Positions 1-17,742 of a stretch of 64,000 nucleotides of DNA are shown piece after piece (positions within the stretch are counted from its first letter, which is position 1; each line of letters begins with the position of its first letter). Where the stretch lies: the NCBI GenBank assembly GCA_907163375.1, contig CAJQUW010008947.1, forward strand, positions 124,001 to 188,000, given 5' to 3'. Under the pieces are notes generated by a model. It did not search any database. It saw only the letters and a list, made by a program, of their open reading frames with translations, and was not told the DNA's origin. Source of the stretch: Prostheceraeus crozeri (lineage: Eukaryota; Platyhelminthes; Polycladida; Euryleptidae). A program made the position numbers and the translations under genes.

Positions 1-532
1 GACCTAATTAGACTATAGCCTAGGCCTAATAGTTAAACTACATAATGTCGGAGCCTACTCGTAGGCCTACCTAAGTAGGCATGGGTTTCGATTTATCAGT
101 TAACTAAATACAGGTATACAACAAAAGAGAACTAATAACAGGCCAATTGCTAGACACACCCAAAATATCGAGGCCATCTACCTACATGTACATATACACT
201 GTACCGGTACAAGCTTCGTCCTTATTGTAATGGATATCATTAATAAGCCACGGCATCATTCATAAGCTTATCAAGAGTCAATTAATAAGCAAACCGTAGC
301 CTATAATGTAGGCCCAAGCTTGCTATCGGGAAGGTAGGCTAGACTTAGAAAATGCAGAATCATGACGGTCGCCTTTTGCTATAACCTGCGACTTATCCTA
401 TAGTTTAATTAGATTAGATTCGTTAGATCCGACTACGTGGACCAAAAATCCATTTCGCTTGGCTTGATGGGGTGATACAGAACCTAGACCTGACTAGCAA
501 GTCCATGCATAGGATACCCGGTTACCTATACG
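1..532. other. Unannotated flank, no gene seen
   Basis: AT-rich sequence with repeated short words such as TAGGCCTA and several stop codons in every frame. I see no coding region, RNA gene or terminal repeat. It precedes the LINE fragment into which the large palindromic element inserted. Confidence 0.5.
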
Positions 533-1005
533 CTAGACACAGAATGGTCTAAACATGGAATAGACAGGCCTAGACACAGTACCAGCGCATGACCCGGTTA
601 CTAGGTCAAGTGCTAGGTCAAGGCGTAGGCTTATGTACAATAATTTATGCATGGTTTGACTTACTGATTTCACTAAATTGCTTAGGCTACGATCGCCCCT
701 TGTTCCCACTAGTCTGCTCCAACTTCCCCTATTCTGGCCTTGGCGTTCTAAGGTGATGATTGGCAGGCCCGTGTCCGTTCGTATTTGGTCTCTCCATCTT
801 TTCGTTGGTCTTCCGAGCGGTCTTGGGTTGGAGAAGTCCTGCCTGAATGTCCTTGGGACATAGTGATTTGACGGTCTTCTCGCTACGTGGCCAAGCCAGC
901 TTAGCCTTCTCTTCAGAATTGCATCTACGATGGCGGTGTTCATGTGGAGGTTCCGTCTGATGGTTTCGTTCGGAATACGGTCTCGGATGCTGGTTCCGTA
1001 GATGG
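533..1005 (-). pseudogene. LINE reverse-transcriptase ORF, 3' portion, left of the insertion
   Basis: Read on the minus strand from 1005 downward, this encodes the C-terminal part of a non-LTR retrotransposon ORF2. The diagnostic stretch is the post-RT region with RRLSWLGHVARR followed by a GRPTKRWRDQI motif, common to many LINE polyproteins. The upstream half lies on the far side of the palindromic element (21999-22095), and the frame continues when one copy of the 6-bp target duplication is removed. The LINE is a fragment: no N-terminal endonuclease is visible. It served as the target site and is not part of the inserted element. The family is clear at superfamily level; I do not assign a clade. 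Confidence 0.8.
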
Positions 1006-1011
1006 CACGTA
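1006..1011 (+). repeat. Target-site duplication, left copy (CACGTA)
   Basis: Six bases CACGTA directly precede the AGTAGTAAG tip. The same six bases directly follow the inverted tip at 21993-21998. The interrupted LINE frame needs only one copy, which supports a true duplication made on insertion. Confidence 0.9.
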
Positions 1012-1064
1012 AGTAGTAAGAAAACGGCGAACACCAGATAGCGCAAGATGGCCGCCATCGCTGA
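1012..1064 (+). repeat. Terminal inverted repeat tip, left
   Basis: The tip starts AGTAGTAAG and includes CACCAGATAGCGCAAGATGG. It matches the inverse of 21940-21992 with a few substitutions just inside the first nine bases, and it matches the tip of the second element at 60288-60340. The 13-bp palindrome GATGGCCGCCATC (1047-1059) resembles paired YY1 sites. Confidence 0.85.
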
Positions 1065-1190
1065 CTCCCCCCCCCTCCCCCTCCCCTCCCCCTCCCCTCC
1101 CCTCCCCTCCCCCTCCCCCTCCCCCTCCCCTCCCCCTCCCCTCCCCCTCCCCTCCCCCTCCCCTCCCCCTCCCCCTCCCCCCCCCTCTGG
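1065..1190 (+). repeat. C-rich (CCCCT)n tract, left tip
   Basis: About 125 bp of almost only C and T, mostly CCCCT and CCCCCT units. The other strand carries many GGGG runs spaced by one base, so it should form G-quadruplexes, and the C strand could form i-motifs. Equivalent tracts sit at the same place in the right tip (about 21865-21938) and in the second element (about 60342-60411). Confidence 0.85.
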
Positions 1191-2530
1191 AACGGCAGAG
1201 TGTCGTGGTCGGCCGCCGTGGTGCTTTGGGTCTGAGTGTCGTGGCGGACTTGGGCGACCGCCAGGATTAGTCTTGAGGCTATAGTGTGTGATGTTTTTCG
1301 TGCTGAATGTTGGGTTGTAAAATGGGTTGTTTCGAGTGGAAGGAGTGGTCGGATGAGAAAACGGAGGTCGGATTCGTGTTCAGCGTGAAATTCTGCATCG
1401 GTAGGGTGAGTTTCAAGGCAATCGGTGAGAAAAAATTTTCAACATTTTTCGAAAAACGACAGAGTTAGAATTTGGGACGTTTTGGTGTGTAGCGTCCAAA
1501 CGAAGCATCGGATGAGAAAACGGAGGCCAGATTCGGATTCAGCGTGAAATTCTGCATCGGTATGGTGAGTTTCAAGTCAATCGGAGAGAAAAATTTTCAC
1601 TGACCTCCCCCCCCCCCCTCTGGACAGCTTGCTTCGATTTTGGCTTCCAGTGGACGGATTTTGTCGTGCGATAGCTCGTTTGAAAGCTAAGAGTGAGACA
1701 AATTCACTGAAAGAATCGGCTTGTTCCTATCTGTCTTCGTTTAGATGTGAGACGCCATTTAAGATTTTGGGACATTGGCAAAAAACGACAGAGTTAGAAT
1801 TTGGGACGTTTTGGTGTGTAGCGCCCAAACGAACCATCGGATGAGAAAACGGAGGCCAGATTCGGAATCTACGTGAAATTTTGGGTTAGGAAGGATGTTT
1901 CCAGCGAAATCGGAGAGAAAAATTTTTCGCTGACCTCCCCCCCCCTCTGGACAGCTTGCTTCGATTTTGGCTTCCAGTGGACGGATTTTGTCGTGCGATA
2001 GCTCGTTTGAAAGCTAAGAGTGAGACAAATTCAGTGAAAGAATCGGCTTGTTCCTATCTGTCTTCGTTCAAAAGTTAGAGCGGCTACAAGATTTTAGGTC
2101 GGAGCTCGCTTACCTGAAAAAATCCTAAGTGTCAGAGTGACTTTGTATGGGTAAAATTTTGAAAATTTTCCAAAGTGTGGAATTTCGACCTGGGACCGTC
2201 ACCAAAACATTTTTCATCAAATTCTGAAATTTCACTGACCTCCCCCCCCTCTGGACAGCTTGCTTCGATTTTGGCTTCTAGTGGACGGATTTTGTCGTGC
2301 GATAGCTCGTTTGAAAGCTAAGAGTGAGACAAATTCAGTGAAAGAATCGGCTTGTTCCTATCTGTCTTCGTTCAAAAGTTAGAGCGGTTACAAGATTTTG
2401 GGACATTGGCGAAAAACGACAGAGTTAGAATTTGGGACGTTTTGGGCTGTAGCTTCAAAACGAAGCATCGGATGGGAAAACGGATTTCAGATTTGGAATC
2501 AGCGTGAAATTCTTTATCTGTATGGTGAGT
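1191..2530 (+). repeat. Subterminal tandem modules, left arm (three copies)
   Basis: Three modules begin with a C tract and CTCTGGACAGCTTGCTTCG near 1617, 1945 and 2250. Two kinds of second half alternate: one runs from TAGATGTGAGACGCC into AGAATTTGGGACGTTTTGG, the other from CAAAAGTTAGAGCGG into TCGGAGCTCGCTTACCTG. The phrase AACGAAGCATCGGATGAG recurs about every 115-330 bp. The same modules occur nine times in the right arm and four times in the second element. Short open frames across them recur only because the DNA repeats. Function unknown; subterminal transposase or terminal-protein binding is one possibility. Confidence 0.85.
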
Positions 2531-2774
2531 TTCATGTCAATCGGAGAGTTTCAAGTCAATCGGAGAGAAAAATTTTCAACATTTTTCGGAAAAACGACAG
2601 TTAGAATTTTTGCGATGGCTGCCTACTGTAGAGCCAAAACGAAGCATCGGATGGGAAAACGGAGGCCAGATTCGGATTCAGCGTCAAATTCTACATGGAA
2701 ATGGTGTATTTCTAGCTCAATCAGAGCACTAGAACCGGAGATAGACGGGATTTTTAGTGTTTGGATGATGGGTA

Positions 2775-2838
2775 TTACGTCATCAGCTGATCGTCACACA
2801 CTATATAAGCTGGGAACCGACGGAGACTTGTCATTCAG
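2775..2838 (+). promoter_or_regulatory. Core promoter of the 366-aa gene, left arm
   Basis: A CRE/ATF-like TTACGTCA (2775-2782) is followed by an E-box CAGCTG (2784-2789), a TATA box TATATAAG (2802-2809) and an initiator-like TCATTCAG (2831-2838) about 28 bases further on. The order and spacing fit an RNA polymerase II promoter. The mirrored copy lies near 17777-17840 on the minus strand. Confidence 0.7.
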
Positions 2839-3290
2839 ACGAGAGATTGCCAACAGTAAGTCGTCTCTCTGAGCTCCGATGATAGCTTCGGACATTCCAA
2901 ATTCCGAGTTTCTGTAAGAAACCGACTTAGAAAATTTCATTGCTGATATCAGCTAAGCCGTCAGACTTAGAGGTTCGCCAGGAGATGGCCTTCGTCTCCA
3001 GGCCATAAAAGACTCTAAAACTTTAAAGGCTTGTAACTTTGCTTCTACAAGTCCGTTTGACTTGATTCAAAAAAGGTTCGGTCGCTATTGACCTGCCCTA
3101 AGTGATAAACTACTTATAAAATTTCATAAGTAGTGCTAAAAAGTTGAAAAATTTAAATTCACTATTTTTGGAGGTTTTCTGGGGTTTTCGACCCTGCTGA
3201 AGTCAATGAAAGCATTTTTAATGATGTCTGAGCCAGTCTTCTCATGCTATAAGCGGCTTTTCACTGAAAGCGAGCAAGACACGGAGAGTT

Positions 3291-3480
3291 TTGCTGTAAT
3301 ATTCCACTGACAGGGTGTTCCTTCGGGACGGCGGACGATGCCGTAGTGATAAGTGTGGCAAGGGAATGTGTCATATTTGAGACCGTAACCGCTGGGGCAA
3401 CTCATGTTGGGCATTTGACACAGCTCTCAACGTAGCACTTTGAACGCCAATCGGTTGAGTCTTAGCTATCTTGTCATGGG
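3291..3480 (+). ncRNA. Structured RNA candidate, copy A (left arm)
   Basis: One of three related approximately 200-nt sequences (A, B, C). It contains TCC-UUCG-GGA (3319-3328), then a stem ACGGC/GCCGT closing a seven-base loop (3328-3344). Further on it has an ACCGTAACC block, CTCATGTTGGGC, and CTCAACGTAG, all shared with B and C in the same order. No reading frame is conserved between copies, so base pairing rather than protein is the likely constraint. It lies within intron 1 of the 366-aa gene. The right-arm copy (about 17125-17325) differs by an 8-bp indel and several substitutions. It is not a family I recognise: no RNase P, group I, group II domain V or hammerhead core. Confidence 0.6.
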
Positions 3481-3488
3481 TGGCCTCT

Positions 3489-3640
3489 AAACATCTCCAT
3501 TGCAAAACGCTGGTGAATCAAGCACTCTACGGCTTGCTATCAAGCTGATCAAAGCAATAACTTGGGATGTTTCCTCAAGGTTTTCAAGTATGCTAAGTTC
3601 AAATCTGATATCATGTTTCAAATTTAACTAAGTCTAAGGC
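3489..3640 (+). other. CTAT-loop hairpins in intron 1, left arm
   Basis: GCTTG-CTAT-CAAGC (3532-3545) sits inside a possible outer stem AAACATC/GATGTTT (3489 and about 3565). A second hairpin near 3601 is decayed here but perfect in the right arm, where AAATCTG and CAGATTT flank the loop (16990-17007, read on the minus strand). Both share the four-base loop with hairpins near B and D. Confidence 0.6.
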
Positions 3641-3679
3641 AGCTTTGAGGGGTTAGATCCCAGCTACTGTTCACTACCT

Positions 3680-3880
3680 TTGACTCGGCGTTCCTGTTAC
3701 CACTTCGGGGCAGTGACAATGATGTCTTCAGCTGTAAAGAGCGGGTATCGGGGAAGATCTCTCACTTCCCTAGTGATCAGTACAAGGCCTTCGGGCTGTC
3801 GACGGGATCGAGTGCCACTCACTACACTCAAATCTATCATTCCTCAGCCGAGGCCTTGGAGTTGGGATAAGATCCCCTCT
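3680..3880 (+). other. UUCG-hairpin region upstream of the 366-aa ORF
   Basis: A GC-rich stretch with GGCGTTCCTG (3687-3696), as at the start of the A-C hairpin, a CAC-TTCG-GGG (3701-3710), and GGCC-UUCG-GGCT (3786-3797). It looks like a diverged relative of the A/B/C family, but I cannot align it along its length. The mirrored copy is at about 16729-16929. Confidence 0.4.
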
Positions 3881-4052
3881 GAGTAATACCTGTAACGGAT
3901 TCATCAGCTTAACTTGTCTATCCTCAAGTAATGATAGCATTACAGTATGACTTTGAAAACATAATCTTCACATTTACTGACATTTTATTTCTATACGTTG
4001 CGCTCTGCTCAGGTTTGATATCAAACTTTCTCATTTTTCTTTGCAGTGAAAA

Positions 4053-5217
4053 ATGACCAAAGACGTGAATAAACGCCTACAATTTTTTAAATGCAGTTGT
4101 GGGGATGTGTTTAGGGGTGAGAATTTTCACCTTCACCATAAAAAGAATGCTGCGCATAGTGTTGCGGTTAAGGTGTGGTTTTGTGTGTGGTGTAATGTGA
4201 GGTGTGATGAAAGGAATGATGCCTTCAGTGAGTTGCACTCGAAGTGTGTATTCAGAAAAATTTCGAAAGTTTTGATGAAGAAGATGATGTGTGGTGAGCA
4301 GGGAATGCTGTATGAGGAGGGAATGTGTGCTCGTTTGCCACCAGTAGAGGTGGTAAATGTTGAAAAGCGTGTTGTGAGTGATGTAGATTTGGATGCGAGT
4401 ACCTCCAAAAAGAGTAGAGTGATGTCGGTGAGTTGGATTTCATCGGATGATGAATGTATGAATGATGATTCGAGTGTTGCTGCTGCTGAGCGTGAGCTTG
4501 AGAAAGCTGTGAGGGCGATTGTACCAGTACCCGAGGTGTTGGCACAATCAACGCCTAGACCTTCACCGAGGTGCGTTGAGAAAGTTGAGAGGTCGACTGT
4601 TCCGTGTGAAGTTGTGCTGTCGAGGGATGATGTGCGTGCTTATACGAATGTGAGGCATGAGTGTGCAAAGTTAGAAGGAAGAGTGAGATCGCTGAAGAGT
4701 ACGCTGAAAGAGGTGACTGCTGAGCGTGATAGTTTGAAGTTGAATGCTGAGAGTGTGACTCAAAAGTTAAGGGAGTGTGCGGCTGCAAAAGAGAGTATGG
4801 TGAAGGAGAGAAAGTTGAAGGAAGAGGCGGTGATGAAGTTTGAGAAGTGTGATCGAGAGCGAAGTGAGGAGCGCATGCTGAAGGAAGCGGCGCTTGAGGA
4901 AGTGAGTTTGTTGAAGAATGAGTTGGCGCGTTTGAAGGAGTGTGAGAAGGTGAAATCTCTCACAACTATGCACATCCCCATCGCAGGTGTCGTCCCTGAC
5001 AAGCCAATTGTATATCTAAATATAAGCAACGACGACACTCAGGAGTGCTACAGCTGTGCGGATGTCCGTTGCTACCATGTAAATATTCAACACACCGACG
5101 ACATCCACATAGCTTGTTCAAAGCCATACAAGTATCGTGAGTATAATGACTGAGATATATCATCATGCCATCTTTCCAACTCTTACTTCTTTCATTTCAG
5201 GAGCCATAAAGAAGTAA
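4053..5217 (+). CDS. Zinc-finger / coiled-coil protein, 366 aa, left arm (intron 5137-5200)
   Basis: The frame is open from ATG 4053. A donor at 5137 (GTGAGT) and an acceptor at 5200 (TTTCATTTCAG) remove 64 bases and end the protein with AIKK at TAA 5215-5217. Without splicing it would stop at 5153, also after 366 residues. The N-terminus has two metal-binding-like clusters: C14, C16, H29, H35, and then C44, C47, C51, H62, C65. A serine/acidic middle (about 110-170) follows, then a long charged coiled coil (about 195-318) and a cysteine-containing tail. There is no catalytic motif. A DNA-binding or scaffold role for the element is an inference. I recognise no named family. The right-arm copy is almost identical (two residue differences), so it is conserved or recently copied. 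Promoter at 2775-2838. Confidence 0.75.
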
Positions 5218-5225
5218 AAGAAAGC

Positions 5226-5345
5226 TATTTCTTGTGAACGCACCAAACGGCCTTTTTAAAGGCCACTCTTAATGTGGCTAGATCGGTCCCAAGCCCGACA
5301 GCATCTTCGGATGTGAACACAGAGGGAGAGTCTACAATTAAAACT
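5226..5345 (+). other. Hairpins downstream of the 366-aa gene
   Basis: GGCCTTT/AAAGGCC forms a tight inverted repeat at about 5250-5265. GCATC-UUCG-GATGT (5301-5314) is a further C(UUCG)G tetraloop hairpin, with one wobble pair. Either could end or stabilise a transcript. Mirrored in the right arm near 15295-15360. Confidence 0.5.
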
Positions 5346-5419
5346 TAGTAAAATAGATGTGTGAGATGGATTCAACCCGAATCCTATAACACCTTTACAT
5401 TTACTGACTATACATTTGT

Positions 5420-5478
5420 CCTGCTATCAGGTTGTTTTGACTTGCTATCTAGTTGAATAGTCTCTTGCTATCAAGAGA
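5420..5478 (+). other. Three consecutive CTAT-loop hairpins
   Basis: CCTG-CTAT-CAGG (5420-5431), ACTTG-CTAT-CTAGT (5440-5453, one mismatch) and TCTCTTG-CTAT-CAAGAGA (5461-5478, seven perfect pairs) follow one another. The stems differ in sequence while the loop and closing G-C pair stay the same. They lead directly into structured element B. Confidence 0.7.
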
Positions 5479-5508
5479 TTCACTTCTGCTCATAAAGCAC
5501 ATCATCGC

Positions 5509-5710
5509 TGTAATACCTCCTTTGCTCGAGCGTTCCTTCGGGACGGCGGGTACTGCCGTAGAGGGATTGTGTTGCACGGGTTGTTCGTCGTTTGTTAGAC
5601 CGAAACCTCTGAGCCGTTGCTCATGTTGGGCGTTCGACTTCATACTCAACGTGACGTTTTCTCTCGCCAGGTCAGAGTACTTCAGCCATTCGACAAAGGT
5701 TAGTCTTTAT
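5509..5710 (+). ncRNA. Structured RNA candidate, copy B (left arm)
   Basis: Second copy of the A/B/C family. It opens with GTAATAC and carries TCC-UUCG-GGA (5534-5543) extended by a CG/CG pair across a bulged T, then ACGGC/GCCGT (5543-5559). Further on are TTAGACCGAAACC, CTCATGTTGGGCG and CTCAACGTGACG. It ends at a possible donor (GTTAGT, 5699) whose acceptor would be at 5816. It lies between the 366-aa and 88-aa genes. Mirrored at about 14899-15100. Confidence 0.6.
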
Positions 5711-5850
5711 GATATGGAGTAGAGTGAAATGTAATTCATTAGATGTCCCTTCAATGATTGCTCCCATGATAAACGTTGATGAGACAAATGAAATGATTCT
5801 CATCTTCCCTTTTCAGCGATTGAAATCTACTAACACACTACCGTATAATC

Positions 5851-5964
5851 GGCCACTATGGGGCAAGACATGATAGAGCCTCCACGCGCTTTGCCCTGGG
5901 CAGTCTTTAGACTGGCGAATACTATCATTAAGTTGAATCTGCTATCAGTCAACTTGAACGTTGC
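5851..5964 (+). repeat. Hairpin direct repeat D1, upstream of the 88-aa gene
   Basis: About 110 bp, repeated directly at 6326-6440 with a few changes. Predicted fold: outer stem ATGATAG/CTATCAT (5870-5876 with 5922-5928); an inner TTTGC/GCGAA stem; a tip CAGTC-TTTA-GACTG (5901-5914); then hairpin AAGTTGA/TCAACTT (5930-5955) with CTAT in its loop. It ends 14 bases before the TATA box of the 88-aa gene, so it could act as a promoter element or a recombination site as well as RNA. Mirrored at 14645-14758. Confidence 0.7.
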
Positions 5965-5978
5965 GTCGTGTTAGAGGG

Positions 5979-5986
5979 TATATAAA
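5979..5986 (+). promoter_or_regulatory. TATA box of the 88-aa gene, left arm
   Basis: TATATAAA lies 39 bases upstream of the first ATG (6018) and directly downstream of repeat D1. Transcription would start near 6010, giving a very short leader. Confidence 0.65.
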
Positions 5987-6017
5987 CCACTGCCTCTCAT
6001 TTCATTTCATTTCAATC

Positions 6018-6284
6018 ATGCAGACGCCGAACAGTCAAGTCAGCTCTCCTCGCGGACCGCAGTTAAGACCGCGAAATTTATTTGATGAATTTGCTAGAAT
6101 AGAGGAGCAAGACAGAGTTCACAACAATCTTGCTCGGATTGGCAATCCGATGACAGCAACTGCTGTCAATCCAACGGAATGGCGCTACATTCCACTTTTT
6201 AGTCATGTGCCAGTTAGTGTGGAAGTCGACAGTGCTACCAAAGAGAGAGTCAAAGACTCTCTCAGCAGAATTGGTAGGGTGTAA
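6018..6284 (+). CDS. Small orphan protein, 88 aa, left arm
   Basis: I chose ATG 6018, the first ATG after the TATA box; an upstream in-frame ATG-less extension to 5961 would overlap the promoter. The protein has a proline/serine/arginine-rich start, a charged middle (NLFDEFARIEEQDR) and a C-terminus with alternating hydrophobic residues around WRYIPLFSHVPVSVEV. There is no signal peptide, membrane segment or motif I recognise. The right-arm copy differs at residue level by one change (F to L in FDEF). It is bracketed by direct repeats D1 and D2 in a cassette-like layout. Function unknown. Confidence 0.6.
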   Translation: MQTPNSQVSSPRGPQLRPRNLFDEFARIEEQDRVHNNLARIGNPMTATAVNPTEWRYIPLFSHVPVSVEVDSATKERVKDSLSRIGRV

Positions 6285-6325
6285 GATGACGTTACTCCCG
6301 AGAACGAACCATCGGCTCTCTTAAG

Positions 6326-6440
6326 GGCCACCATGGGGCAAGACATGATAGAACCTCCACGCGGTTTGCCCAAGGGCAGTCTTCGGACTGGCGAATACTA
6401 TCATTAAGTTGAATCTGCTATCAGTCAACTTGAACGTTGC
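6326..6440 (+). repeat. Hairpin direct repeat D2, downstream of the 88-aa gene
   Basis: Direct copy of D1. The outer stem ATGATAG/CTATCAT is at 6345-6351 and 6398-6404. The tip hairpin keeps its five-pair stem CAGTC/GACTG (6377-6390), but its loop is UUCG instead of UUUA. The AAGTTGA/TCAACTT hairpin with CTAT loop is at 6406-6431. It leads into structured element C. Mirrored at 14169-14283. Confidence 0.7.
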
Positions 6441-6451
6441 AAATGAAGTTC

Positions 6452-6660
6452 GGTGTAATACTTCCTTTCGACGGGCGTTCCTGTAAAGGGCGGCGGTGAA
6501 ACCCGTAGCTATGTATACCGCAAGGGACATTCGGCAATGGTCAATCTTGTTAAACCTCTCTGCGTCATGTTTGCAAGTGATTGCCTCTGTCTCAACGTAG
6601 TATGCATTCGCGCCAGGGCGACATTTAGCCAACTGTCGAAGGTTACCTTATAAACTATCC
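6452..6660 (+). ncRNA. Structured RNA candidate, copy C (left arm)
   Basis: Third copy of the A/B/C family. It starts GTGTAATACTTCC. The tetraloop hairpin is CCT-GUAA-AGG (6480-6489), so the UUCG loop of A and B is replaced by a GNRA loop on an equivalent stem. A CCGTAG follows as in A and B. Further shared blocks are GCAAGGGA, AAACCTCT, CATGTTTG and CTCAACGTAG. The minus strand is open for 103 codons, but its frame is not the one open opposite B. Mirrored at about 13949-14157. Confidence 0.6.
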
Positions 6661-6782
6661 ATTGCATACGTTATGAGAACCATGAGTTCTACCTGTCTCT
6701 ATCAATGAGACGAATTGATGAATGGAATGAAATGGGAGGACACTCACGCGCCACACGCAACATAACACACTTCTCTCTTCCG

Positions 6783-7190
6783 TAGTCTAACAAGCTCTTT
6801 ACACATGGATCGCAGTCGATTGCTATCCCTATATCAGAAGTGTAAGCTATCTTAATTTTATCTAACACTATTTCATCTACCATTATCATCCATATGAAAT
6901 GTTATAAGAATTGCAAGTTAGACTAAGCGTGCTACTATTTCCAAATGAAAAGTATACATGGTTAAATCATCCACTTAAGCCCATCCGTAGTCTAACAAGC
7001 TCTTTACACATGGATCGCAGTGGATTGCTATCCCTGTATCAGAAGTGTAAGCTATCTAAATTTTATTTAACACTATTTCATCTACCATCATCACCCATAT
7101 GAAGTGTCATAAGATTTACAAGTTAGACTAAGCGTTCTACTATTTGTAAATGAAAGATATCATTTCAACAGTTTACAGATTGAAAATAAA
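6783..7190 (+). repeat. About 203-bp tandem duplication before the minisatellite
   Basis: Two copies of a unit beginning CCGTAGTCTAACAAGCTC (near 6780 and 6985), each ending in AAGTTAGACTAAGCG and a stretch like CTATTTGTAAATGAAA. That ending recurs at 8681, 10380 (inverted) and 13450 (inverted), where it marks the edge of minisatellite blocks. Confidence 0.7.
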
Positions 7191-9265
7191 GTTTCAATAG
7201 TGTGTGCGTTAGAAATAAAGCTTTATCTGTTTGTATGTTAGAAACAAAATAAAGTTTACAAGATAAAAAGTAAAGTTTCACCACTTTACAAGTTAAGAAT
7301 AAAGTTCTATCTGTTTATATGTTAGAAATAAAAATGAAGGTTCACCAGTTTACAAGTTAAGAATAAAGTTTTATCTGCTTGTATGTCAGAAATCAAATAA
7401 AGTTTCACCAGTTTACAAGTTAAAAAATAAAGTTTCAATAGTGTGTACGTTAGAAATAAAGTTTTAGCTGTTTTTATGTTAAAAATAAAATAAAGTTTCA
7501 ACCGTTTACAAGTTAAAAATGAAGTTTCAATAGTGTATATGTTAAGAATAAAGTTCTATCTGTTTATATGTTAGAAATAAAAATGAAGGTTCACCAGTTT
7601 ACAAGTTAAGAATAAAGTTTTATCTGCTTGTATGTCAGAAATCAAATAAAGTTTCACCAGTTTACAAGTTAAAAAATAAAGTTTCAATAGTGTGTACGTT
7701 AGAAATAAAGTTTCAATAGTGTATATGTTAAGAATAAAGCTTTATCTGTTTGTATGTTAGACATAAAACAAAGTTTCAACCGTTAACAAGTTAAAAATAA
7801 AGTTTCAGATTAAAATAAAGTTTCAATAGTGTGTATGATGGAAATAAAGTTTAAGCGCTTTGTGCGTTAAAAATAAAGTTTCAACATTGTGTACGTTAAG
7901 AATAAAGTTCTATCTGTTTATATGTTAGAAATAAAAATGAAGGTTCATCAGTTTACAAGTTAAGAATAAAGTTTTATCTGCTTGTATGTCAGAAATGAAA
8001 TAAAGTTTCACCAGTTTAACAGTTAAGAATAAAGTTTCAATAGTGTGTATGATAAGAATATACTTCTATCTGTTTATATGTTAGAAATAAAATGAAGTTT
8101 CGTCAGTTTACAAGTTAAGAATACATTTTATCTGCTTGTATGTTAGAATTAAAGCAAAGTTTCAACCGTTTACAGGTTAAAAATAAAGTTTCAATAGTTA
8201 ACACGTTAAAAATAAAGTTTCAATAGTGTGTATGTTAAGAATAAAGTTCTATCTGTTTGTATGTTAGAAATAAAATGAAGTTTCATCAGTTTACAAGTTA
8301 AGAATAAAGTTTTATCTGTTTGTATGTTAGACATAAAACAAAGTTTCAACCGTTAACAAGTTAAAAATAAAGTTTCAATAGTTTACAAGTTAAAACTAAT
8401 GTTTCAATAGTGCGTATGTTAAGAATAAAGTTTTATCTGTTTCTATGTTAGAAATAAAATGAAGCTTCACCAGTTTACAAGTTAAGAATAAAGTTTTATC
8501 AGCTTGTATGTTAGAAATAAAATGAAGTTTCACCAGTTTACAAATTAAAAATAAAGTTTCAATAGTGTGTACGTTAGAAATAAAGTTTCAACCGTTTACA
8601 AGTTAAAAATAAAGTTTCAACAGTGTCTACGTTAGAAATAAAGTTTTATCTGTTTGTAAAGTACGATCGTAGGATTTACTAGTTTGCAAGTTAGACTCAA
8701 CATTCTACTAGTTGTAAATGAAAATATCGTTTCAGCCGTTTACAAGTTAAAAATAAAGTTTCAACGGTGTGTACGTTAGAAATAAAGTTTTAGCTGTTTA
8801 TATGTTAGAAACAAAATAAAGTTTCAACAGTTTACAAGTTGAAAAATAAAGTTTCAACAGTGTATACGTTAGAAATAAATGAAAGTAAGACCTTCATCGT
8901 ATGCGTATTCAAAGCATGTTTTGTAAATCAAATGTGTGTAGTCCTGACATGATAGAATCGCGTTAGAAATAAAGTTTCAGCCGTTTACAAGTTAAAAATA
9001 AAGTTTTAGCTGTTTATATGTTAGAAACAAAATAAAGTTTCAACAGTTTACAGATTAAAATAAAGTTTCAACAGTGTGTACGTTACAAATAAAGTTTTAG
9101 CTGTTTATATGTTAGAAACAAAATAAAGTTTCAACAGTTTACAAGTTGAAAAATAAAGTTTCAACAGTGTGTACGTTAGAAATAAATGAAAGTAAGACCT
9201 TCATCGTATGCATATTCAAAGCATGTTTTGTAAATCAAATGTGTGTAGTCCTGACATGATAGAAT
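7140..9265 (+). repeat. 29-bp AATAAA minisatellite, left arm
   Basis: More than 60 units of about 28-29 bp follow AATAAAGTTT + variable + GT(A/T)(A/C)GTTA(G/A)A. Every unit carries the poly(A) signal AATAAA on the plus strand, the coding strand of this arm. A 77-bp non-repeat insert (starting GAAAGTAAGACC) occurs at 8881-8957 and 9188-9265. No protein is credible here. Confidence 0.9.
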
Positions 9266-9297
9266 TAAGCTTGACAAACGCGTTTGTCAAGTTCATT
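9266..9297. repeat. Palindrome centre
   Basis: The symmetry point is between 9280 and 9281, in CTTGACAAACG/CGTTTGTCAAG, with no spacer. Just outside, the arms differ by a four-base indel (ATGA) before GAATTAA. The symmetry then continues for kilobases. Confidence 0.9.
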
Positions 9298-10385
9298 TAA
9301 TTCTATCATGTCAGGACTACACACATTTGATTTACAAAACATGCTTTGAATATGCATACGATGAAGGTCTTACTTTCATTTATTTCTAACGTACACACTG
9401 TTGAAACTTTATTTTTCAACTTGTAAACTGTTGAAACTTTATTTTGTTTCTAACATATAAACAGCTAAAACTTTATTTGTAACGTACACACTGTTGAAAC
9501 TTTATTTTAATCTGTAAACTGTTGAAACTTTATTTTGTTTCTAACATATAAACAGCTAAAACTTTATTTTTAACTTGTAAACTGGTGAAGCTTCATTTTA
9601 TTTCTAACATAGAAACAGATAAAACTTTATTCTTAACATACGCACTATTGAAACATTAGTTTTAACTTGTAAACTATTGAAACTTTATTTTTAACTTGTT
9701 AACGGTTGAAACTTTGTTTTATGTCTGACATACGAACAGATAAAACTTTATTCTTAACTTGTAAACTGATGAAACTTCATTTTATTTCTAACATACAAAC
9801 AGATAGAACTTTATTCTTAACATACACACTATTGAAACTTTATTTTTAACGTGTTAACTATTGAAACTTTATTTTTAACCTGTAAACGGTTGAAACTTTG
9901 CTTTAATTCTAACATACAAGCAGATAAAATGTATTCTTAACTTGTAAACTGACGAAACTTCATTTTATTTCTAACATATAAACAGATAGAAGTATATTCT
10001 TATCATACACACTATTGAAACTTTATTCTTAACTTTTAAACTGGTGAAACTTTATTTCATTTCTGACATACAAGCAGATAAAACTTTATTCTTAACTTGT
10101 AAACTGATGAACCTTCATTTTTATTTCTAACATATAAACAGATAGAACTTTATTCTTAACATATACACTATTGAAACTTCATTTTTAACTTGTAAACGGT
10201 TGAAACTTTATTTTATTTTTAACATACAAACAGCTAAAACTTTATTTCTAACGTATACACTGTTGAAACTTGTAAACTCTTGAAACTTTATTTTATTTCT
10301 AACATACAAGCTGATAAAACTTTATTCTTAACTTGTAAACTGATGAAACTTTATTTTTAACGTGTAAACTATTGAAACTATATCT
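9293..10385 (-). repeat. 29-bp minisatellite, right arm, proximal block
   Basis: Inverse of the left-arm array: units read ACTTTATT on the plus strand. It begins with the inverted 77-bp insert (about 9297-9375). The unit order follows the left arm for several hundred bases and then diverges by unit gain and loss. Confidence 0.85.
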
Positions 10386-10600
10386 TTCATTTACAAATAA
10401 TAGAACGCTTAGTCTAACTTGCAAACTAGTAAATCTTATTCGTCATCAAATCTAACTGTTATAATCCTCATCATGGAAATCAATGTTCCACAGTCCTTTG
10501 AAAAAGATATGATCACCCTTCATCTAACCCATCCGTCGCATGATAACAACAACAACTCTTCGCATAATAACATTTATTGAATAACTGTAACAAGCATGCA
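10386..10600 (-). other. 3' trailer of a captured gene
   Basis: Non-repeat sequence between minisatellite blocks. On the minus strand it follows the stop of the exonuclease-like fragment, contains AATAAA and matches the downstream sequence of the second element (63897-64000) before running into the array. Confidence 0.75.
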
Positions 10601-10773
10601 TTACAAATCAATGGTTTGAAACAGATAAAATAGATACAGCTGGTAACTGTCATATAGCGAGCAATGATAACCATATAGGACTTTGACAGTGTTGAGGTAA
10701 GGAGGAAAGAAGCATTGGTTATGAACGTAGCTACTACAACGAACAGACAAAATAGGAACATACAAATCCTTAA
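10601..10773 (-). pseudogene. C-terminal fragment of the DEDDh exonuclease-like ORF
   Basis: The minus strand matches the last 57 or so codons of the exonuclease-like exon at 63364-63894, down to the same TAA stop. Most differences are silent; I see only about two residue changes, including A to V, so it came from a functional relative. The HCSLYD motif is kept. The upstream edge changes abruptly into minisatellite at about 10774, so the catalytic N-terminus is missing and this copy cannot be a working nuclease. It has no counterpart in the left arm, and it is the strongest link between the two elements in this window. Confidence 0.8.
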
Positions 10774-13445
10774 TTCCAACGTGTACACTATTAAAACTTT
10801 ATTTTCAGCTTGTAAACTGTTCAAACTTTATTTTTTATCTTGCACACTATTTAAACTTTATTTTAAAACTTGTAAACTATTGAAACTTTATTTTTAACTT
10901 GCAAACTATTGAAACTTTATTTTATTTCTAACATATAAACAGATAGAACTTTATTCTTAACTTGTAAACTGGTGAAACTTTATTTCTAACTGGTAAACTT
11001 TTGAAGTTTTATTTTTAACTTGTAATTGTTGAAGCTTTAATTTTAACTTGTAAACTCTTAAAACTTTATTTTTAACTTGTTAACGGTTGAAAATTTGTTT
11101 TATTTCTATCATAGAAACAGATAGAACTTTATTTCTAACGTACACACAATTGAAACTTTATCTTATTTCTAACATACAAACAGCTGAAACGTTATTTCTA
11201 ATGCACATACTATTGGAACTTTTCTTTTAACTTATAATCTGTTGAAACTTTATTTTGACTTGTAAACTGATGAAACTTTATTTCTAACTGGTAAACTTTT
11301 GAAGTTTTATTTTTAACTTGTAATTGTTGAAGCTTTAATTTTAACTTGTACTCTGTTGAAACTTTATTTTTCACTTGTAAACGGTTGAAACTTTGTTTTA
11401 TTTCTATCATACAAACAGATAGAACTTTATTCTTAACTTGTAAACTGATGAAACTTCATTTTATTTCTAACATATAAACTGTTATAACTCTATTTTGAAG
11501 CACATAAACTATTAAAACTTTATTTCCAACGTGTACACTATTAAAACTTTATTTTCAGCTTGTAAACTGTTCAAACTTTATTTTTTATCTTGCACACTAT
11601 TTAAACTTTATTTTAAAACTTGTAAACTATTGAAACTTTATTTTTAACTTGCAAACTATTGAAACTTTATTTTATTTCTAACATATAAACAGATAGAACT
11701 TTATTCTTAACTTGTAAACTGGTGAAACTTTATTTCTAACTGGTAAACTTTTGAAGTTTTATTTTTAACTTGTAATTGTTGAAGCTTTAATTTTAACTTG
11801 TAAACTCTTAAAACTTTATTTTTAACTTGTTAACGGTTGAAAATTTGTTTTATTTCTATCATAGAAACAGATAGAACTTTATTTCTAACGTACACACAAT
11901 TGAAACTTTATCTTATTTCTAACATACAAACAGCTGAAACGTTATTTCTAATGCACATACTATTGGAACTTTTCTTTTAACTTATAATCTGTTGAAACTT
12001 TATTTTGACTTGTAAACTGATGAAACTTTATTTCTAACTGGTAAACTTTTGAAGTTTTATTTTTAACTTGTAATTGTTGAAGCTTTAATTTTAACTTGTA
12101 CTCTGTTGAAACTTTATTTTTCACTTGTAAACGGTTGAAACTTTGTTTTATTTCTATCATACAAACAGATAGAACTTTATTCTTAACTTGTAAACTGATG
12201 AAACTTCATTTTATTTCTAACATATAAACTGTTATAACTCTATTTTGAAGCACATAAACTATTAAAACTTTATTTCCAACGTGTACACTATTAAAACTTT
12301 ATTTTCAGCTTGTAAACTGTTCAAACTTTATTTTTTATCTTGCACACTATTTAAACTTTATTTTAAAACTTGTAAACTATTGAAACTTTATTTTTAACTT
12401 GCAAACTATTGAAACTTTATTTTATTTCTAACATATAAACAGATAGAACTTTATTCTTAACTTGTAAACTAGTGAAACTTCATTCTATTCCTAACATATA
12501 AACAGATAGAACTTTATTCTTAACTTATAAACTTAAAGAGATAGAACTTTATTCGTAACTTGTAAACTGGTGAAACTTCATTCTATTTCTAACATACAAA
12601 CAGATAAAACTTTATTCTTAACATACACACACTATTGAAACATTAGTTTTAACTTGTAAACTCTTAAAACTTTATTTTTAACTTGTTAACGGTTGAAAAT
12701 TTGTTTTATTTCTATCATAGAACCAGATAGAACTTTATTTCTAACGTACACACAATTGAAACTTTATCTTATTTCTAACATACAAACAGCTGAAACGTTA
12801 TTTCTAATGCACATACTATTGGAACTTTTCTTAAAACTTATAATCTGTTGAAACTTTATTTTGACTTGTAAACTGATGAAACTTTATTTCTAACTGGTAA
12901 ACTTTTGAAGTTTTATTTTTAACTTGTAATTGTTGAAGCTTTAATTTTAACTTGTAAACTGTTGAAACTTTATTTTTCACTTGTAAACGGTTGAAACTTT
13001 GTTTTATTTCTATCATACAAACAGATAGAACTTTATTCTTAACTTGTAAACTGATGAAACTTCATTTTATTTCTAACATATAAACTGTTATAACTCTATT
13101 TTGAAGCACATAAACTATTAAAACTTTATTTCCAACGTGTACACTATTAAAACTTTATTTTCAGCTTGTAAACTGTTCAAACTTTATTTTTTATCTTGCA
13201 CACTATTTAAACTTTATTTTAAAACTTGTAAACTATTGAAACTTTATTTTTAACTTGCAAACTATTGAAACTTTATTTTATTTCTAACATATAAACAGAT
13301 AGAACTTTATTCTTAACTTGTAAAGTGGTGAAACTTTACTTTTTATCTTGTAAACTTTATTTTGTTTCTAACATACAAACAGATAAAGCTTTATTTCTAA
13401 CGCACACACTATTGAAACTTCATTTTCAATCTGTAAACTGTTGAA
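10774..13445 (-). repeat. Minisatellite with 750-bp higher-order repeat, right arm
   Basis: The word CAACGTGTACACTATT recurs near 10777, 11527, 12277 and 13133: two exact 750-bp steps and one of 856. Inside each period are about 26 units of the 29-bp repeat with the same private variants, so the period amplified as a block. This accounts for most of the 2 kb by which the inner right arm exceeds the left. Confidence 0.9.
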
Positions 13446-13850
13446 ATGATATCTTTCATTTACAAATAGTAGAACGCTTAGTCTAACTTGTAAATCTTAT
13501 GACACTTCATATGGGTGATGATGGTAGATGAAATAGTGTTAAATAAAATTTAGATAGCTTACACTTCTGATACAGGGATAGCAATCCACTGCGATCCATG
13601 TGTAAAGAGCTTGTTAGACTACGGATGGGCTTAAGTGGATGATTTAACCATGTATACTTTTCATTTGGAAATAGTAGCACGCTTAGTCTAACTTGCAATT
13701 CTTATAACATTTCATATGGATGATAATGGTAGATGAAATAGTGTTAGATAAAATTAAGATAGCTTACACTTCTGATATAGGGATAGCAATCGACTGCGAT
13801 CCATGTGTAAAGAGCTTGTTAGACTACGGAAGAGAGAAGTGTGTTATGTT
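13446..13850 (-). repeat. About 203-bp tandem duplication, right arm
   Basis: Mirror image of 6783-7190, essentially identical (sum 20609). The outer copy reads into the C element. Confidence 0.75.
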
Positions 13851-13948
13851 GCGTGTGGCGCGTGAGTGTCCTCCCATTTCATTCCATTCATCAATTCGTC
13901 TCATTGATAGAGACAGGTAGAACTCATGGTTCTCATAACGTATGCAAT

Positions 13949-14157
13949 GGATAGTTTATAAGGTAACCTTCGACAGTTGGCTAAATGTCGCCCTGGCGCG
14001 AATGCATACTACGTTGAGACAGAGGCAATCACTTGCAAACATGACGCAGAGAGGTTTAACAAGATTGACCATTGCCGAATGTCCCTTGCGGTATACATAG
14101 CTACGGGTTTCACCGCCGCCCTTTACAGGAACGCCCGTCGAAAGGAAGTATTACACC
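13949..14157 (-). ncRNA. Structured RNA candidate, copy C (right arm)
   Basis: Mirror of 6452-6660 with the GUAA tetraloop hairpin kept. The plus strand here shows the same 103-codon opposite-strand frame, which I do not regard as a gene. Confidence 0.6.
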
Positions 14158-14168
14158 GAACTTCATTT

Positions 14169-14283
14169 GCAACGTTCAAGTTGACTGATAGCAGATTCAA
14201 CTTAATGATAGTATTCGCCAGTCCGAAGACTGCCCTTGGGCAAACCGCGTGGAGGTTCTATCATGTCTTGCCCCATGGTGGCC
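14169..14283 (-). repeat. Hairpin repeat D2 (right arm)
   Basis: Mirror of 6326-6440 with all stems intact. Confidence 0.7.
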
Positions 14284-14324
14284 CTTAAGAGAGCCGATGG
14301 TTCGTTCTCGGGAGTAACGTCATC

Positions 14325-14591
14325 TTACACCCTACCAATTCTGCTGAGAGAGTCTTTGACTCTCTCTTTGGTAGCACTGTCGACTTCCACACTAACTGGC
14401 ACATGACTAAAAAGTGGAATGTAGCGCCATTCCGTTGGATTGACAGCAGTTGCTGTCATCGGATTGCCAATCCGAGCAAGATTGTTGTGAACTCTGTCTT
14501 GCTCCTCTATTCTAGCCAATTCATCAAATAAATTTCGCGGTCTTAACTGCGGTCCGCGAGGAGAGCTGACTTGACTGTTCGGCGTCTGCAT
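14325..14591 (-). CDS. Small orphan protein, 88 aa, right arm
   Basis: Inverted copy of the gene at 6018-6284, with start at 14591. One residue differs (L for F near position 25). The TATA box is at 14623-14630. The same D repeats flank it. Nothing in the sequence indicates decay, so both arms could express it. Confidence 0.6.
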   Translation of the reverse strand: MQTPNSQVSSPRGPQLRPRNLFDELARIEEQDRVHNNLARIGNPMTATAVNPTEWRYIPLFSHVPVSVEVDSATKERVKDSLSRIGRV

Positions 14592-14644
14592 GATTGAAAT
14601 GAAATGAAATGAGAGGCAGTGGTTTATATACCCTCTAACACGAC

Positions 14645-14758
14645 GCAACGTTCAAGTTGACTGATAGCAGATTCAACTTAATGATAGTATTCGCCAGTCT
14701 AAAGACTGCCCAGGGCAAAGCGCGTGGAGGCTCTATCATGTCTTGCCCCATAGTGGCC
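14645..14758 (-). repeat. Hairpin repeat D1 (right arm)
   Basis: Mirror of 5851-5964, with the UUUA tip loop. Confidence 0.7.
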
Positions 14759-14898
14759 GATTATACGGTAGTGTGTTAGTAGATTTCAATCGCTGAAAAG
14801 GGAAGATGAGAATCATTTCATTTGTCTCATCAACGTTTATCATGGGAGCAATCATTGAAGGGACATCTAATGAATTACATTTCACTCTACTCCATATC

Positions 14899-15100
14899 AT
14901 AAAGACTAACCTTTGTCGAATGGCTGAAGTACTCTGACCTGGCGAGAGAAAACGTCACGTTGAGTATGAAGTCGAACGCCCAACATGAGCAACGGCTCAG
15001 AGGTTTCAGTCTAACAAACGACGAACAACCCGTGCAACGCAATCCCTCTACGGCAGTACCCGCCGTCCCGAAGGAACGCTCGAGCAAAGGAGGTATTACA
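14899..15100 (-). ncRNA. Structured RNA candidate, copy B (right arm)
   Basis: Mirror of 5509-5710. A few substitutions fall outside the two main hairpins. The three CTAT-loop hairpins follow at 15131-15189. Confidence 0.6.
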
Positions 15101-15391
15101 GCGATGATGTGCTTTATGAGCAGAAGTGAATCTCTTGATAGCAAGAGACTATTCAACTAGATAGCAAGTCAAAACAACCTGATAGCAGGACAAATGTATA
15201 GTCAGTAAATGTAAAGGTGTTATAGGATTCGGGTTGAATCCATCTCACACATCTATTTTACTAAGTTTTAATTGTAGACTCTCCCTCTGTGTTCACATCC
15301 GAAGATGCTGTCGGGCTTGGGACCGATCTAGCCACATTAAGAGTGGCCTTTAAAAAGGCCGTTTGGTGCGTTCACAAGAAATAGCTTTCTT

Positions 15392-16556
15392 TTACTTCTT
15401 TATGGCTCCTGAAATGAAAGAAGTAAGAGTTGGAAAGATGGCATGATGATATATCTCAGTCATTATACTCACGATACTTGTATGGCTTTGAACAAGCTAT
15501 GTGGATGTCGTCGGTGTGTTGAATATTTACATGGTAGCAACGGACATCCGCACAGCTGTAGCACTCCTGAGTGTCGTCGTTGCTTATATTTAGATATACA
15601 ATTGGCTTGTCAGGGACGACACCTGCGATGGGGATGTGCATAGTTGTGAGAGATTTCACCTTCTCACACTCCTTCAAACGCGCCAACTCATTCTTCAACA
15701 AACTCACTTCCTCAAGCGCCGCTTCCTTCAGCATGCGCTCCTCACTTCGCTCTCGATCACACTTCTCAAACTTCATCACCGCCTCTTCCTTCAACTTTCT
15801 CTCCTTCACCATATTCTCTTTTGCAGCCGCACACTCCCTTAACTTTTGAGTCACACTCTCAGCATTCAACTTCAAACTATCACGCTCAGCAGTCACCTCT
15901 TTCAGCGTACTCTTCAGCGATCTCACTCTTCCTTCTAACTTTGCACACTCATGCCTCACATTCGTATAAGCACGCACATCATCCCTCGACAGCACAACTT
16001 CACACGGAACAGTCGACCTCTCAACTTTCTCAACGCACCTCGGTGAAGGTCTAGGCGTTGATTGTGCCAACACCTCGGGTACTGGTACAATCGCCCTCAC
16101 AGCTTTCTCAAGCTCACGCTCAGCAGCAGGAACACTCGAATCATCATTCATACATTCATCATCCGATGAAATCCAACTCACCGACATCACTCTACTCTTT
16201 TTGGAGGTACTCGCATCCAAATCTACATCACTCACAACACGCTTTTCAACATTTACCACCTCTACTGGTGGCAAACGAGCACACATTCCCTCCTCATACA
16301 GCATTCCCTGCTCACCACACATCATCTTCTTCATCAAAACTTTCGAAATTTTTCTGAATACACACTTCGAGTGCAACTCACTGAAGGCATCATTCCTTTC
16401 ATCACACCTCACATTACACCACACACAAAACCACACCTTAACCGCAACACTATGCGCAGCATTCTTTTTATGGTGAAGGTGAAAATTCTCACCCCTAAAC
16501 ACATCCCCACAACTGCATTTAAAAAATTGTAGGCGTTTATTCACGTCTTTGGTCAT
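15392..16556 (-). CDS. Zinc-finger / coiled-coil protein, 366 aa, right arm (intron 15409-15472)
   Basis: Inverted copy of the left gene. The start is ATG at 16556, the donor follows 15473, the acceptor precedes 15408, and the stop is at 15394-15392. Only two residues differ from the left copy (A to P near residue 143 and S to N near residue 248). All proposed metal ligands are kept. Such similarity over two arms means recent duplication or ongoing gene conversion. The promoter and 5' exon are mirrored near 17754-17840. Confidence 0.75.
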
Positions 16557-16722
16557 TTTTCACTGCAAAGAAAAATGAGAAAGTTTGATATCAAACCTGA
16601 GCAGAGCGCAACGTATAGAAATAAAATGTCAGTAAATGTGAAGATTATGTTTTCAAAGTCATACTGTAATGCTATCATTACTTGAGGATAGACAAGTTAA
16701 GCTGATGAATCCGTTACAGGTA

Positions 16723-17340: not shown

Positions 17341-17742
17341 CTCGCTTTCAGTGAAAAGCCGCTTATAGCATGAGAAGACTGGCTCAGACATCATTAAAAA
17401 TGCTTTCATTGACTTCAGCAGGGTCGAAAACCCCAGAAAACCTCCAAAACTAGTGAATTTAAATTTTTCAACTTTTTAGCACTACTTATGAAATTTTATA
17501 AGTAGTCTGTCACTTAGGCCAGGTCAATAGCGACCGAACCTTTTTTGAATCAAGTCAAACGGACTTGTAGAAGCAAAGTTACAAGCCTTTAAAGTTTTAG
17601 AGTCTTTTATGGCCTGGAGACGAAGGCCATCTCCTGGCGAACCTCTAAGTCTGACGGCTTAGCTGATATCAGCAATGAAATTTTCTAAGTCGGTTTCTTA
17701 CAGAAACTCGGAATTTGGAATGTCCGAAGCTATCATCGGAGC

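What the first reader, a model, noticed from the sequence alone, without database searches (positions are those of the whole stretch)
3291..6660. Three-copy family of structured sequences with a UUCG to GUAA tetraloop exchange
A (3291-3480), B (5509-5710) and C (6452-6660) share an ordered set of blocks over about 200 nt. At the same place A and B have TCC-UUCG-GGA, while C has CCT-GUAA-AGG: stem kept, one stable tetraloop class swapped for another. A and B then keep ACGGC/GCCGT around different loop sequences. Open frames opposite B and C are in different registers, so protein coding does not explain the conservation. UUCG loops lie only on the strand that also reads the genes. I know of no RNA family with these landmarks.
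Basis: partly seen in the sequence, partly recalled or inferred. Interest (0 to 1): 0.9.

Follow-up and report, generated by a model that had tools for sequence, protein, structure and literature searches.

The report
Unknown structured RNA beside self-cleaving ribozymes
Three diverged copies of an unknown, apparently folded RNA of about 215 letters sit in a mirror-image piece of DNA whose two genes appear to end in a histone-type hairpin followed at once by a predicted self-cutting RNA, which may be a new way to finish messages without a poly(A) tail.

Summary
The observation largely holds. A, B and C are three diverged copies, each repeated in the mirror arm, of one structured RNA of about 215 nt on the gene strand. 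Of 53 consensus pairs, 23 carry a change on both sides (shuffled mean 10.3, 0/500 as high). In two long arms each copy's 5' strand pairs best with its own 3' strand (6 of 6); single helices do so in 18 of 24. Rfam gives A, B and C nothing but one chance-level hit (E 2.1). The highlighted UUCG-to-GUAA exchange is the weak part.

The surroundings are more striking. Both genes of the arm end in a histone-like stem-loop and, 5-6 nt beyond, the predicted cut site of a self-cleaving RNA: twister after gene 1, HDV-like after gene 2. B lies between two ribozymes; cleavage would free 589 nt whose ends pair.

Best reading: an unknown RNA domain of a palindromic mobile-element-like locus, placed in transcript parts outside the mRNAs. 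Function is inferred. With three independent copies the fold is well supported, not proven; the search for further genomic copies did not complete.

The parts
3284..3497 (+). Family copy A. P3 = 3304-3314 with 3470-3479. Lies inside a putative intron of gene 1.
   Evidence: mirror copy 17098-17330 (-) with a 7-nt insertion in the apical part
5500..5713 (+). Family copy B. P3 = 5519-5529 with 5690-5699. Lies between the twister and HDV-like ribozyme 1.
   Evidence: mirror copy 14879-15111 (-)
6444..6660 (+). Family copy C. P3 = 6464-6474 with 6633-6642. Lies downstream of HDV-like ribozyme 2.
   Evidence: mirror copy 13937-14165 (-)
2802..2808 (+). TATA-like box upstream of gene 1; a possible 5' splice site GTAAGT at 2856-2861
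   Evidence: sequence only, inferred
4027..4046 (+). Pyrimidine-rich stretch plus AG, possible 3' splice site 6 nt before the ATG of ORF1
   Evidence: sequence only, inferred
4053..5153 (+). ORF1, 366 aa: Cys/His-rich N terminus, predicted long helix (191-302), C-terminal part
   Evidence: one relative elsewhere differing at one residue, P0001; mirror 15456-16556
5249..5264 (+). Histone-type 3' stem-loop of gene 1 (GGCCUU-UUUA-AAGGCC, followed by AC)
   Evidence: (28.3 bits, E 2e-4; curated cut-off 34)
5266..5330 (+). Twister-like ribozyme, type P1, without P3 hairpin; predicted cut 5270^5271, 6 nt after the stem-loop
   Evidence: 41.5 bits, E 3e-6; curated cut-off 67.2; P1, P2, P4 from the alignment, both pseudoknots by inspection
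5860..5928 (+). HDV-like ribozyme 1; predicted cut 5859^5860
   Evidence: descriptor, written after seeing it, hits here and in its mirror only; 2 hits in 10 shuffled windows; extent
5979..5985 (+). TATATAA box; the ATG of ORF2 is 39 nt from its start
6018..6284 (+). ORF2, 88 aa, conserved small protein
   Evidence: relatives P0002 (94%) and P0003 (73-74%), both 88 aa
6314..6329 (+). Histone-type 3' stem-loop of gene 2 (GGCUCU-CUUA-AGGGCC, followed by ACCA)
   Evidence: (18.1 bits, E 1.3 and 0.08, below cut-off 34)
6335..6404 (+). HDV-like ribozyme 2; predicted cut 6334^6335, or one base later, 5-6 nt after the stem-loop
   Evidence: 94% identical to the region of ribozyme 1 over 115 nt; NOT found by the strict descriptor; extent
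5271..5859 (+). 589-nt fragment between two predicted cut sites, holding copy B; its ends can pair; longest ATG frame if circular 50 aa
   Evidence: -10.5 kcal/mol; 6 of 2000 random 12-mer pairs from about 1500-7000 as good

Best explanation
A, B and C are three paralogous copies of a compact structured RNA domain of about 215 nt. They belong to a mobile-element-like locus present as a palindrome. SUPPORTED by sequence comparison: the fold, on the gene strand, through compensatory changes in several helices. INDICATED by sequence: both genes of the arm end in a histone-type stem-loop followed after 5-6 nt by the cut site of a self-cleaving ribozyme, so mRNA ends resembling histone mRNA ends would be made without poly(A) signals or the host endonuclease. 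INFERRED: all three copies lie in RNA that is not mature mRNA: A in the putative intron of gene 1, B in the fragment between twister and HDV-like ribozyme 1, C downstream of HDV-like ribozyme 2. The domain therefore works as a noncoding RNA of the element. My guess is a recognition platform for an element protein (the Cys/His-rich coiled-coil ORF1 product is the candidate) for replication, reverse transcription or packaging. Fragment B would have a 5'-hydroxyl, a cyclic-phosphate 3' end and pairing ends, so a host RtcB-type ligase could close it into a stable 589-nt circle.
For: Fold: RNAalifold z -4.2, 0 of 300 shuffles; 23 of 53 pairs with a change on both sides against 10.3 shuffled (0/500), sliding controls 1-7 pairs; each 5' strand pairs best with its own 3' strand in 6 of 6 comparisons of two long arms. 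Context: twister E 3e-6 and Histone3 E 2e-4; neither family is listed at E<=10 in 20000-64000; a stem-loop descriptor hits only 5249, 6314 and their mirrors in 64 kb and 0 times in 50 windows shuffled within 100-base blocks; HDV-like descriptor; pairing ends of fragment B. Two different ribozyme classes at nearly the same distance from the stem-loop argue against accident. ORF2 is kept at 88 aa in two relatives.
Against: Only three independent copies exist here; the mirror arm is nearly identical and adds little. The structure was derived from the same sequences that test it. Single helices prefer their own partner in 18 of 24 rows, with 2 ties and 4 misses, 3 of the misses in copy B. In one search shuffled 3' strands pair as well as the real one in 10, 144 and 26 of 2000 trials for A, B, C in P1-P3 and in 35, 212 and 4 of 2000 in P4-P6: B alone is not significant. 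The consensus fold lies 12, 26 and 20 kcal/mol above the single-copy optimum of A, B and C. All three Rfam matches are below curated cut-offs, the gene 2 stem-loop far below; HDV-like ribozyme 2 fails the strict descriptor; no HDV family of Rfam matches. The three codon differences between arms in ORF1 and ORF2 are all non-synonymous. Transcription, splicing, cleavage, ligation and protein binding are all untested.
Confidence: 0.4

Rival explanations
1. A, B and C are an unknown class of larger self-processing ribozyme, like the other catalytic RNAs beside them.
For: Multi-helix fold with invariant stretches, largely unpaired (UAAUA, GGG, CUCAACGU, CGCCA); twister and HDV-like ribozymes close by.
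Against: Unlike the twister and the HDV-like RNA, no copy sits at the end of a gene or next to a stem-loop; I can propose no cut site; no match to any Rfam ribozyme on a copy.
Confidence: 0.15
2. The domain is the template-recognition structure of a reverse transcriptase acting in trans, as structured 3' regions are for R2-type elements (recalled), and the locus is a non-autonomous retroelement.
For: HDV-like ribozymes are reported in R2 and other LINE elements (passages of PMC7761336); size and low sequence conservation of the domain fit; a LINE-type ORF lies at 50834-53497.
Against: No reverse transcriptase domain in ORF1 or ORF2; I identified no A-tail or target-site duplication, though I made no systematic search; three copies per arm are unusual; ribozymes follow genes.
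Confidence: 0.2
3. The copies are cis-acting parts of mRNAs (translation enhancers or nuclease blocks), the ribozyme cuts being partial or inactive.
For: A and B stand 5' of ORF1 and ORF2, on the same strand.
Against: No ORF of 110 aa or more follows C before the AT-rich repeats; a TATA box separates B from ORF2; A lies in a possible intron.
Confidence: 0.12
4. The copies are old duplicated non-functional DNA whose pairing is an artefact of alignment and of choosing the structure.
For: Three copies only; the structure comes from the same data; single-copy folds differ; copy B alone is not significant.
Against: Both-side changes are more than twice the shuffled level and mostly vanish on sliding; P3 differs in sequence in all three copies yet keeps 10 bp and one bulge.
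Confidence: 0.05

Closest known systems
Retrozymes and other ribozyme-bearing mobile elements (Penelope-like elements, Terminons, R2/RTE LINEs)
   Same: Self-cleaving RNAs inside a repeat; cut RNAs thought to be circularised by a host ligase (passages of PMC7761336).
   Different: Those passages describe hammerheads, or HDV-like and truncated twister RNAs thought to process 5' ends; here twister and HDV-like RNAs directly follow genes and stem-loops, and a further structured RNA is present. No reverse transcriptase domain in ORF1 or ORF2.
Replication-dependent histone mRNA 3' ends
   Same: 6-bp stem, 4-nt loop, A/C-rich 5' flank and AC after the stem, RNA end about 5 nt beyond it (comparison with general knowledge and the Rfam consensus).
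   Different: ORF1 and ORF2 have no histone domain; a ribozyme, not the U7-guided endonuclease, would make the end. In gene 1 one extra base precedes the stem.
Twister ribozyme, type P1 (Rfam RF03160)
   Same: Match spans model positions 1-68; both pseudoknots present by inspection.
   Different: P3 hairpin missing, an extra UUCG hairpin between P4 and P2'; 41.5 bits, below the curated 67.2.
Hepatitis delta-like ribozymes
   Same: Nested double pseudoknot with P1-P4 in the same order, similar L3 and J4/2 (recalled, not a database match; descriptor).
   Different: No HDV family of Rfam is listed at E<=10; copy 2 departs in P1/J1.1-4.

Membership tests
A known RNA family (for A, B, C) | Match to an Rfam 15 covariance model | tested here: not met
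   No match at gathering scores. At E<=10 the only hit inside a copy is a CRISPR repeat model at E 2.1 in A; a C. elegans snoRNA model at E 3.7 starts at 6669, just after C; none.
Structured RNA as such (for A, B, C) | Compensatory changes beyond controls | tested here: met
   with three independent copies only; see the weak results for copy B
Type-P1 twister ribozyme | Covariance-model match | tested here: inconclusive
   41.5 bits, E 3e-6 in 20 kb, but below the gathering score 67.2
Type-P1 twister ribozyme | P1, P2, P4 and both pseudoknots with the conserved letters | tested here: met
   alignment; pseudoknots GGC/GCC and UCCC/GGGA read by eye from 5266-5330 (sequence)
Type-P1 twister ribozyme | Self-cleavage | not testable with these tools
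   needs transcription in vitro
HDV-like ribozyme | Nested double pseudoknot P1-P4 with the J4/2 cytosine (recalled definition) | tested here: met
   copy 1: descriptor; 2 chance hits in 10 shuffled windows
HDV-like ribozyme | The same in copy 2 | tested here: inconclusive
   not found by the strict descriptor; region 94% identical to copy 1; P1 needs a one-base shift or a first mismatch
HDV-like ribozyme | Match to an Rfam HDV model | tested here: not met
   not listed at E<=10
Histone 3' UTR stem-loop | Covariance-model match at the curated score | tested here: not met
   28.3 and 18.1 bits against 34
Histone 3' UTR stem-loop | 6-bp stem starting GG, 4-nt loop with two U, A-C after the stem, RNA end about 5 nt beyond | tested here: met
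   (the RNA end is only the predicted ribozyme cut)
Histone 3' UTR stem-loop | Binding by SLBP | not testable with these tools
   needs protein and RNA
Retrozyme | Hammerhead ribozymes, small non-coding element (recalled and from listing abstracts) | tested here: not met
   no hammerhead family among Rfam matches; ORFs present

The most novel reading that the evidence does not exclude
A selfish DNA element that has left host 3'-end processing altogether: its genes carry histone-type stem-loops and two unrelated ribozyme classes cut 5-6 nt beyond them, while a new RNA domain, present three times in the discarded transcript parts, is released (once as a circle) and serves the element's own replication or packaging.
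Probability: 0.3. Interest if true: 0.93.

Novelty: categorically new. Interest (0 to 1): 0.8.

Why it matters
If the fold and the gene ends are real, this is an RNA family outside Rfam and, as far as five searches of an open-licence library show, an undescribed way to make poly(A)-free mRNA ends: a ribozyme in place of the histone endonuclease. It can be tested with short transcripts in a tube, and it would give a natural counterpart of engineered ribozyme-ended mRNAs and ribozyme-made RNA circles.

Tried and rejected
The 18-base core of A/B occurs once in viral contigs, inside an ORF of what looks from its ORFs like a phage contig: chance. Two further patterns in viral contigs, each fitting two of the three copies (7 and 24 stretches, fit checked), and one in bacterial genomes (3 stretches) were searched with the family model, all 35 loci including the first: best 14.6 bits (E 0.015, away from the pattern match) against 209-222 for members, taken as noise. 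The pattern mixes letters of different copies and occurs in no copy of the window, so that search was poorly aimed. No relative of ORF1 or ORF2 in viral contigs. A possible fourth copy at 3673-3697 (26 aligned positions similar to C, E 3) is not found by the model. Structure models of ORF1 and ORF2 are poor (mean pLDDT 50.8 and 57.7), so no fold search was made. ARAGORN finds no tRNA. Group I intron, RNase P, SRP and known small ribozymes were considered for A/B/C and dropped for lack of an Rfam match. A 24-codon frame over HDV-like ribozyme 2 was read as chance, since ribozyme 1 breaks it (by eye).
Full report
What was checked. The window holds a large palindrome: 1349-9186 matches 19270-11519 in reverse at 92%, and from about 2300 to 7330 the arms are nearly identical. 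A, B and C lie in the left arm on the + strand, with mirror copies on the - strand.

Relatedness. Comparison of 2701-7100 with itself gives A-B 70% over 147 nt, A-C 61% over 269 nt and B-C 71% over 59 nt. The family model, built from the six copies, finds those six in 64 kb at 209-222 bits, as it must by construction; the next matches have 5.8 and 4.3 bits.

Structure. The three-copy alignment folds at -34.5 kcal/mol; 300 column shuffles that keep gap pattern and conservation give -18.9 (sd 3.7), none as low; the reverse strand gives z -2.9, 2 of 300. On the six-row alignment (five distinct rows) 23 of 53 pairs have a change on both sides, shuffled mean 10.3, 0 of 500 as high; 93.5% of cells pair against 81.9% shuffled; sliding the partners by 1-3 columns leaves 1-7 such pairs. 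By hand the order is: P1 (GTTT/AAAC in A, ATCAT/ATGAT in B, AGTT/AACT in C; not part of the 53 counted pairs), P2 (4 bp), a conserved UAAUA-type internal loop, P3 (10 bp and one bulge, sequence different in all three), hairpin Ha (the UUCG/GUAA site), hairpin Hb (CGG N6 CCG, invariant), the long arm P4-P8, the conserved CGCCA and UUAGCCA-like 3' joint, then P3', P2' and P1'.

Controls by strand exchange. For P1-P3 and for P4-P6 taken whole, each copy's own 3' strand is the best partner in 6 of 6 rows, narrowly for B in P4-P6 (-19.0 against -18.1 with A's strand). Helix by helix the own partner is best in 18 of 24 rows, tied in 2 (P7 of A and B) and beaten in 4 (P2, P4 and P5 of B, P8 of C). 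Against shuffled 3' strands the real one is matched in 10, 144 and 26 of 2000 trials for A, B, C (P1-P3) and in 35, 212 and 4 of 2000 (P4-P6). The consensus fold lies 12, 26 and 20 kcal/mol above the single-copy optimum of A, B and C; some of that gap may come from misaligned pairs, which I did not repair. With three independent copies, one of them weak alone, this is good but not final evidence.

The tetraloop exchange. UUCG in A and B and GUAA in C do align. But the hairpin alone is predicted more stable as a longer stem with a UUC triloop in A and B, and helix Ha shows no pair changed on both sides (helix 3). It is not the evidence for the family.

No known family. Rfam at gathering scores: no match in 64 kb. 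At E<=10 one chance-level hit falls on a copy (E 2.1, in A), none. Three patterns in viral contigs and one in bacterial genomes gave 35 stretches, none a relative by the family model.

Surroundings. The permissive Rfam scan of 1-20000 gives a type-P1 twister at 5266-5330 (E 3e-6) and histone 3' stem-loops at 5244-5288 (E 2e-4) and 6309-6353 (18.1 bits, E 1.3; 0.08 when 1.2 kb is searched), with mirrors. The rest of the window, 20000-64000, lists neither family at E<=10. A simple stem-loop descriptor hits only 5249, 6314 and mirrors, and 0 times in 50 windows shuffled within 100-base blocks. All these Rfam matches are below the curated cut-offs.

HDV-like RNAs. The repeat at 5851-5964 and 6326-6440 (94% over 115 nt) has the double-pseudoknot order of HDV-like ribozymes. 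A descriptor written after seeing them finds copy 1 and its mirror and nothing else in 64 kb, with 2 hits in 10 windows shuffled within 50-base blocks; it does not find copy 2, whose P1/J1.1-4 differs by one inserted base. The likeness of L3 and J4/2 to HDV is from recall.

Gene ends. ORF1 (4053-5153) is followed by the stem-loop 5249-5264 and the twister cut 5270^5271, 6 nt beyond. ORF2 (6018-6284) is followed by the stem-loop 6314-6329 and the HDV-like cut 6334^6335, 5 nt beyond, or 6 if P1 is shifted by one. The cut positions are predictions from what is known of the ribozyme classes. Two different catalysts at the same place after the same element is the strongest argument that the arrangement is selected. 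ORF2 has two relatives of the same length, 94% and 73-74% identical (no more with the three-row profile); ORF1 one relative that differs at one residue. The three codon differences between arms in ORF1 and ORF2 are all non-synonymous: too few to judge selection, and no support for it.

Where A, B and C lie. A TATA box at 2802 followed by GTAAGT at 2856, and a pyrimidine-rich stretch with AG ending at 4046, suggest an intron that would hold A (not tested). B lies between two predicted cuts that would free 589 nt; the ends pair with -10.5 kcal/mol, reached by 6 of 2000 random 12-mer pairs of the region. That fragment has no long frame (50 aa at most). C follows the last ribozyme found. All three are thus outside the inferred mature mRNAs, which is why I favour a noncoding role.

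Literature. Searches for twister with histone stem-loop, self-cleaving ribozyme with stem-loop binding protein, ribozyme with histone stem-loop and transposon, with non-histone, and self-cleaving with SLBP and histone mRNA (one paper on an engineered system, seen as a listing with the start of its abstract) gave no description of this arrangement. Searches gave listings, partly on ribozymes in repeats. Only open-licence papers are held. Of PMC7761336 I read passages: HDV-like ribozymes in R2 and other LINEs, truncated twisters in RTE elements, hammerheads in Penelope-like elements and Terminons. The label 'categorically new' rests on the missing family match and on these negative searches; a distant member of a known family cannot be excluded, and the ribozymes and stem-loops taken singly are variants of known kinds.

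What is missing. The source organism is unknown to me.

Noticed in passing
2944, 3535, 3932, 4016, 5422, 5466 (and mirror arm): Short hairpins or palindromes with a TG[A/C]TA[G/T]CA core and stems of differing sequence; 6 in 2701-7200 against 0.04 expected from 300 block shuffles. One lies within about 35 nt of each of A and B. Interrupted forms at 5940 and 6416, the latter just before C.
   Followed up: partly
1349-9186 and 11519-19270: Large palindrome whose centre is AT-rich with repeats spaced 29 and 63 nt; the outer ends run into repeats found elsewhere in the window.
   Followed up: partly
6018-6284: 88-aa protein without Pfam match, kept at 88 aa in two relatives.
   Followed up: yes
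4053-5153: 366-aa protein: Cys/His-rich start and a predicted helix of about 110 residues; no Pfam match above cut-off.
   Followed up: partly
6779-6895 and 6984-7100: 117-nt direct repeat, 95% identical, between C and the AT-rich centre.
   Followed up: no
3673-3697: Resemblance over 26 aligned positions to the start of C (6460-6484), perhaps a decayed fourth copy.
   Followed up: partly
50834-53497: 887-aa ORF with a reverse transcriptase domain and an endonuclease match 0.1 bit under its cut-off, LINE-type.
   Followed up: no
54127-54374: Stretch that scores as a microRNA family at E 9.5e-10 but far below its cut-off (66 against 211 bits); perhaps an inverted-repeat element.
   Followed up: no
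24032-24421 and 40629-41024: Two ORFs with GIY-YIG nuclease domains, as in Penelope-like elements (association recalled).
   Followed up: no
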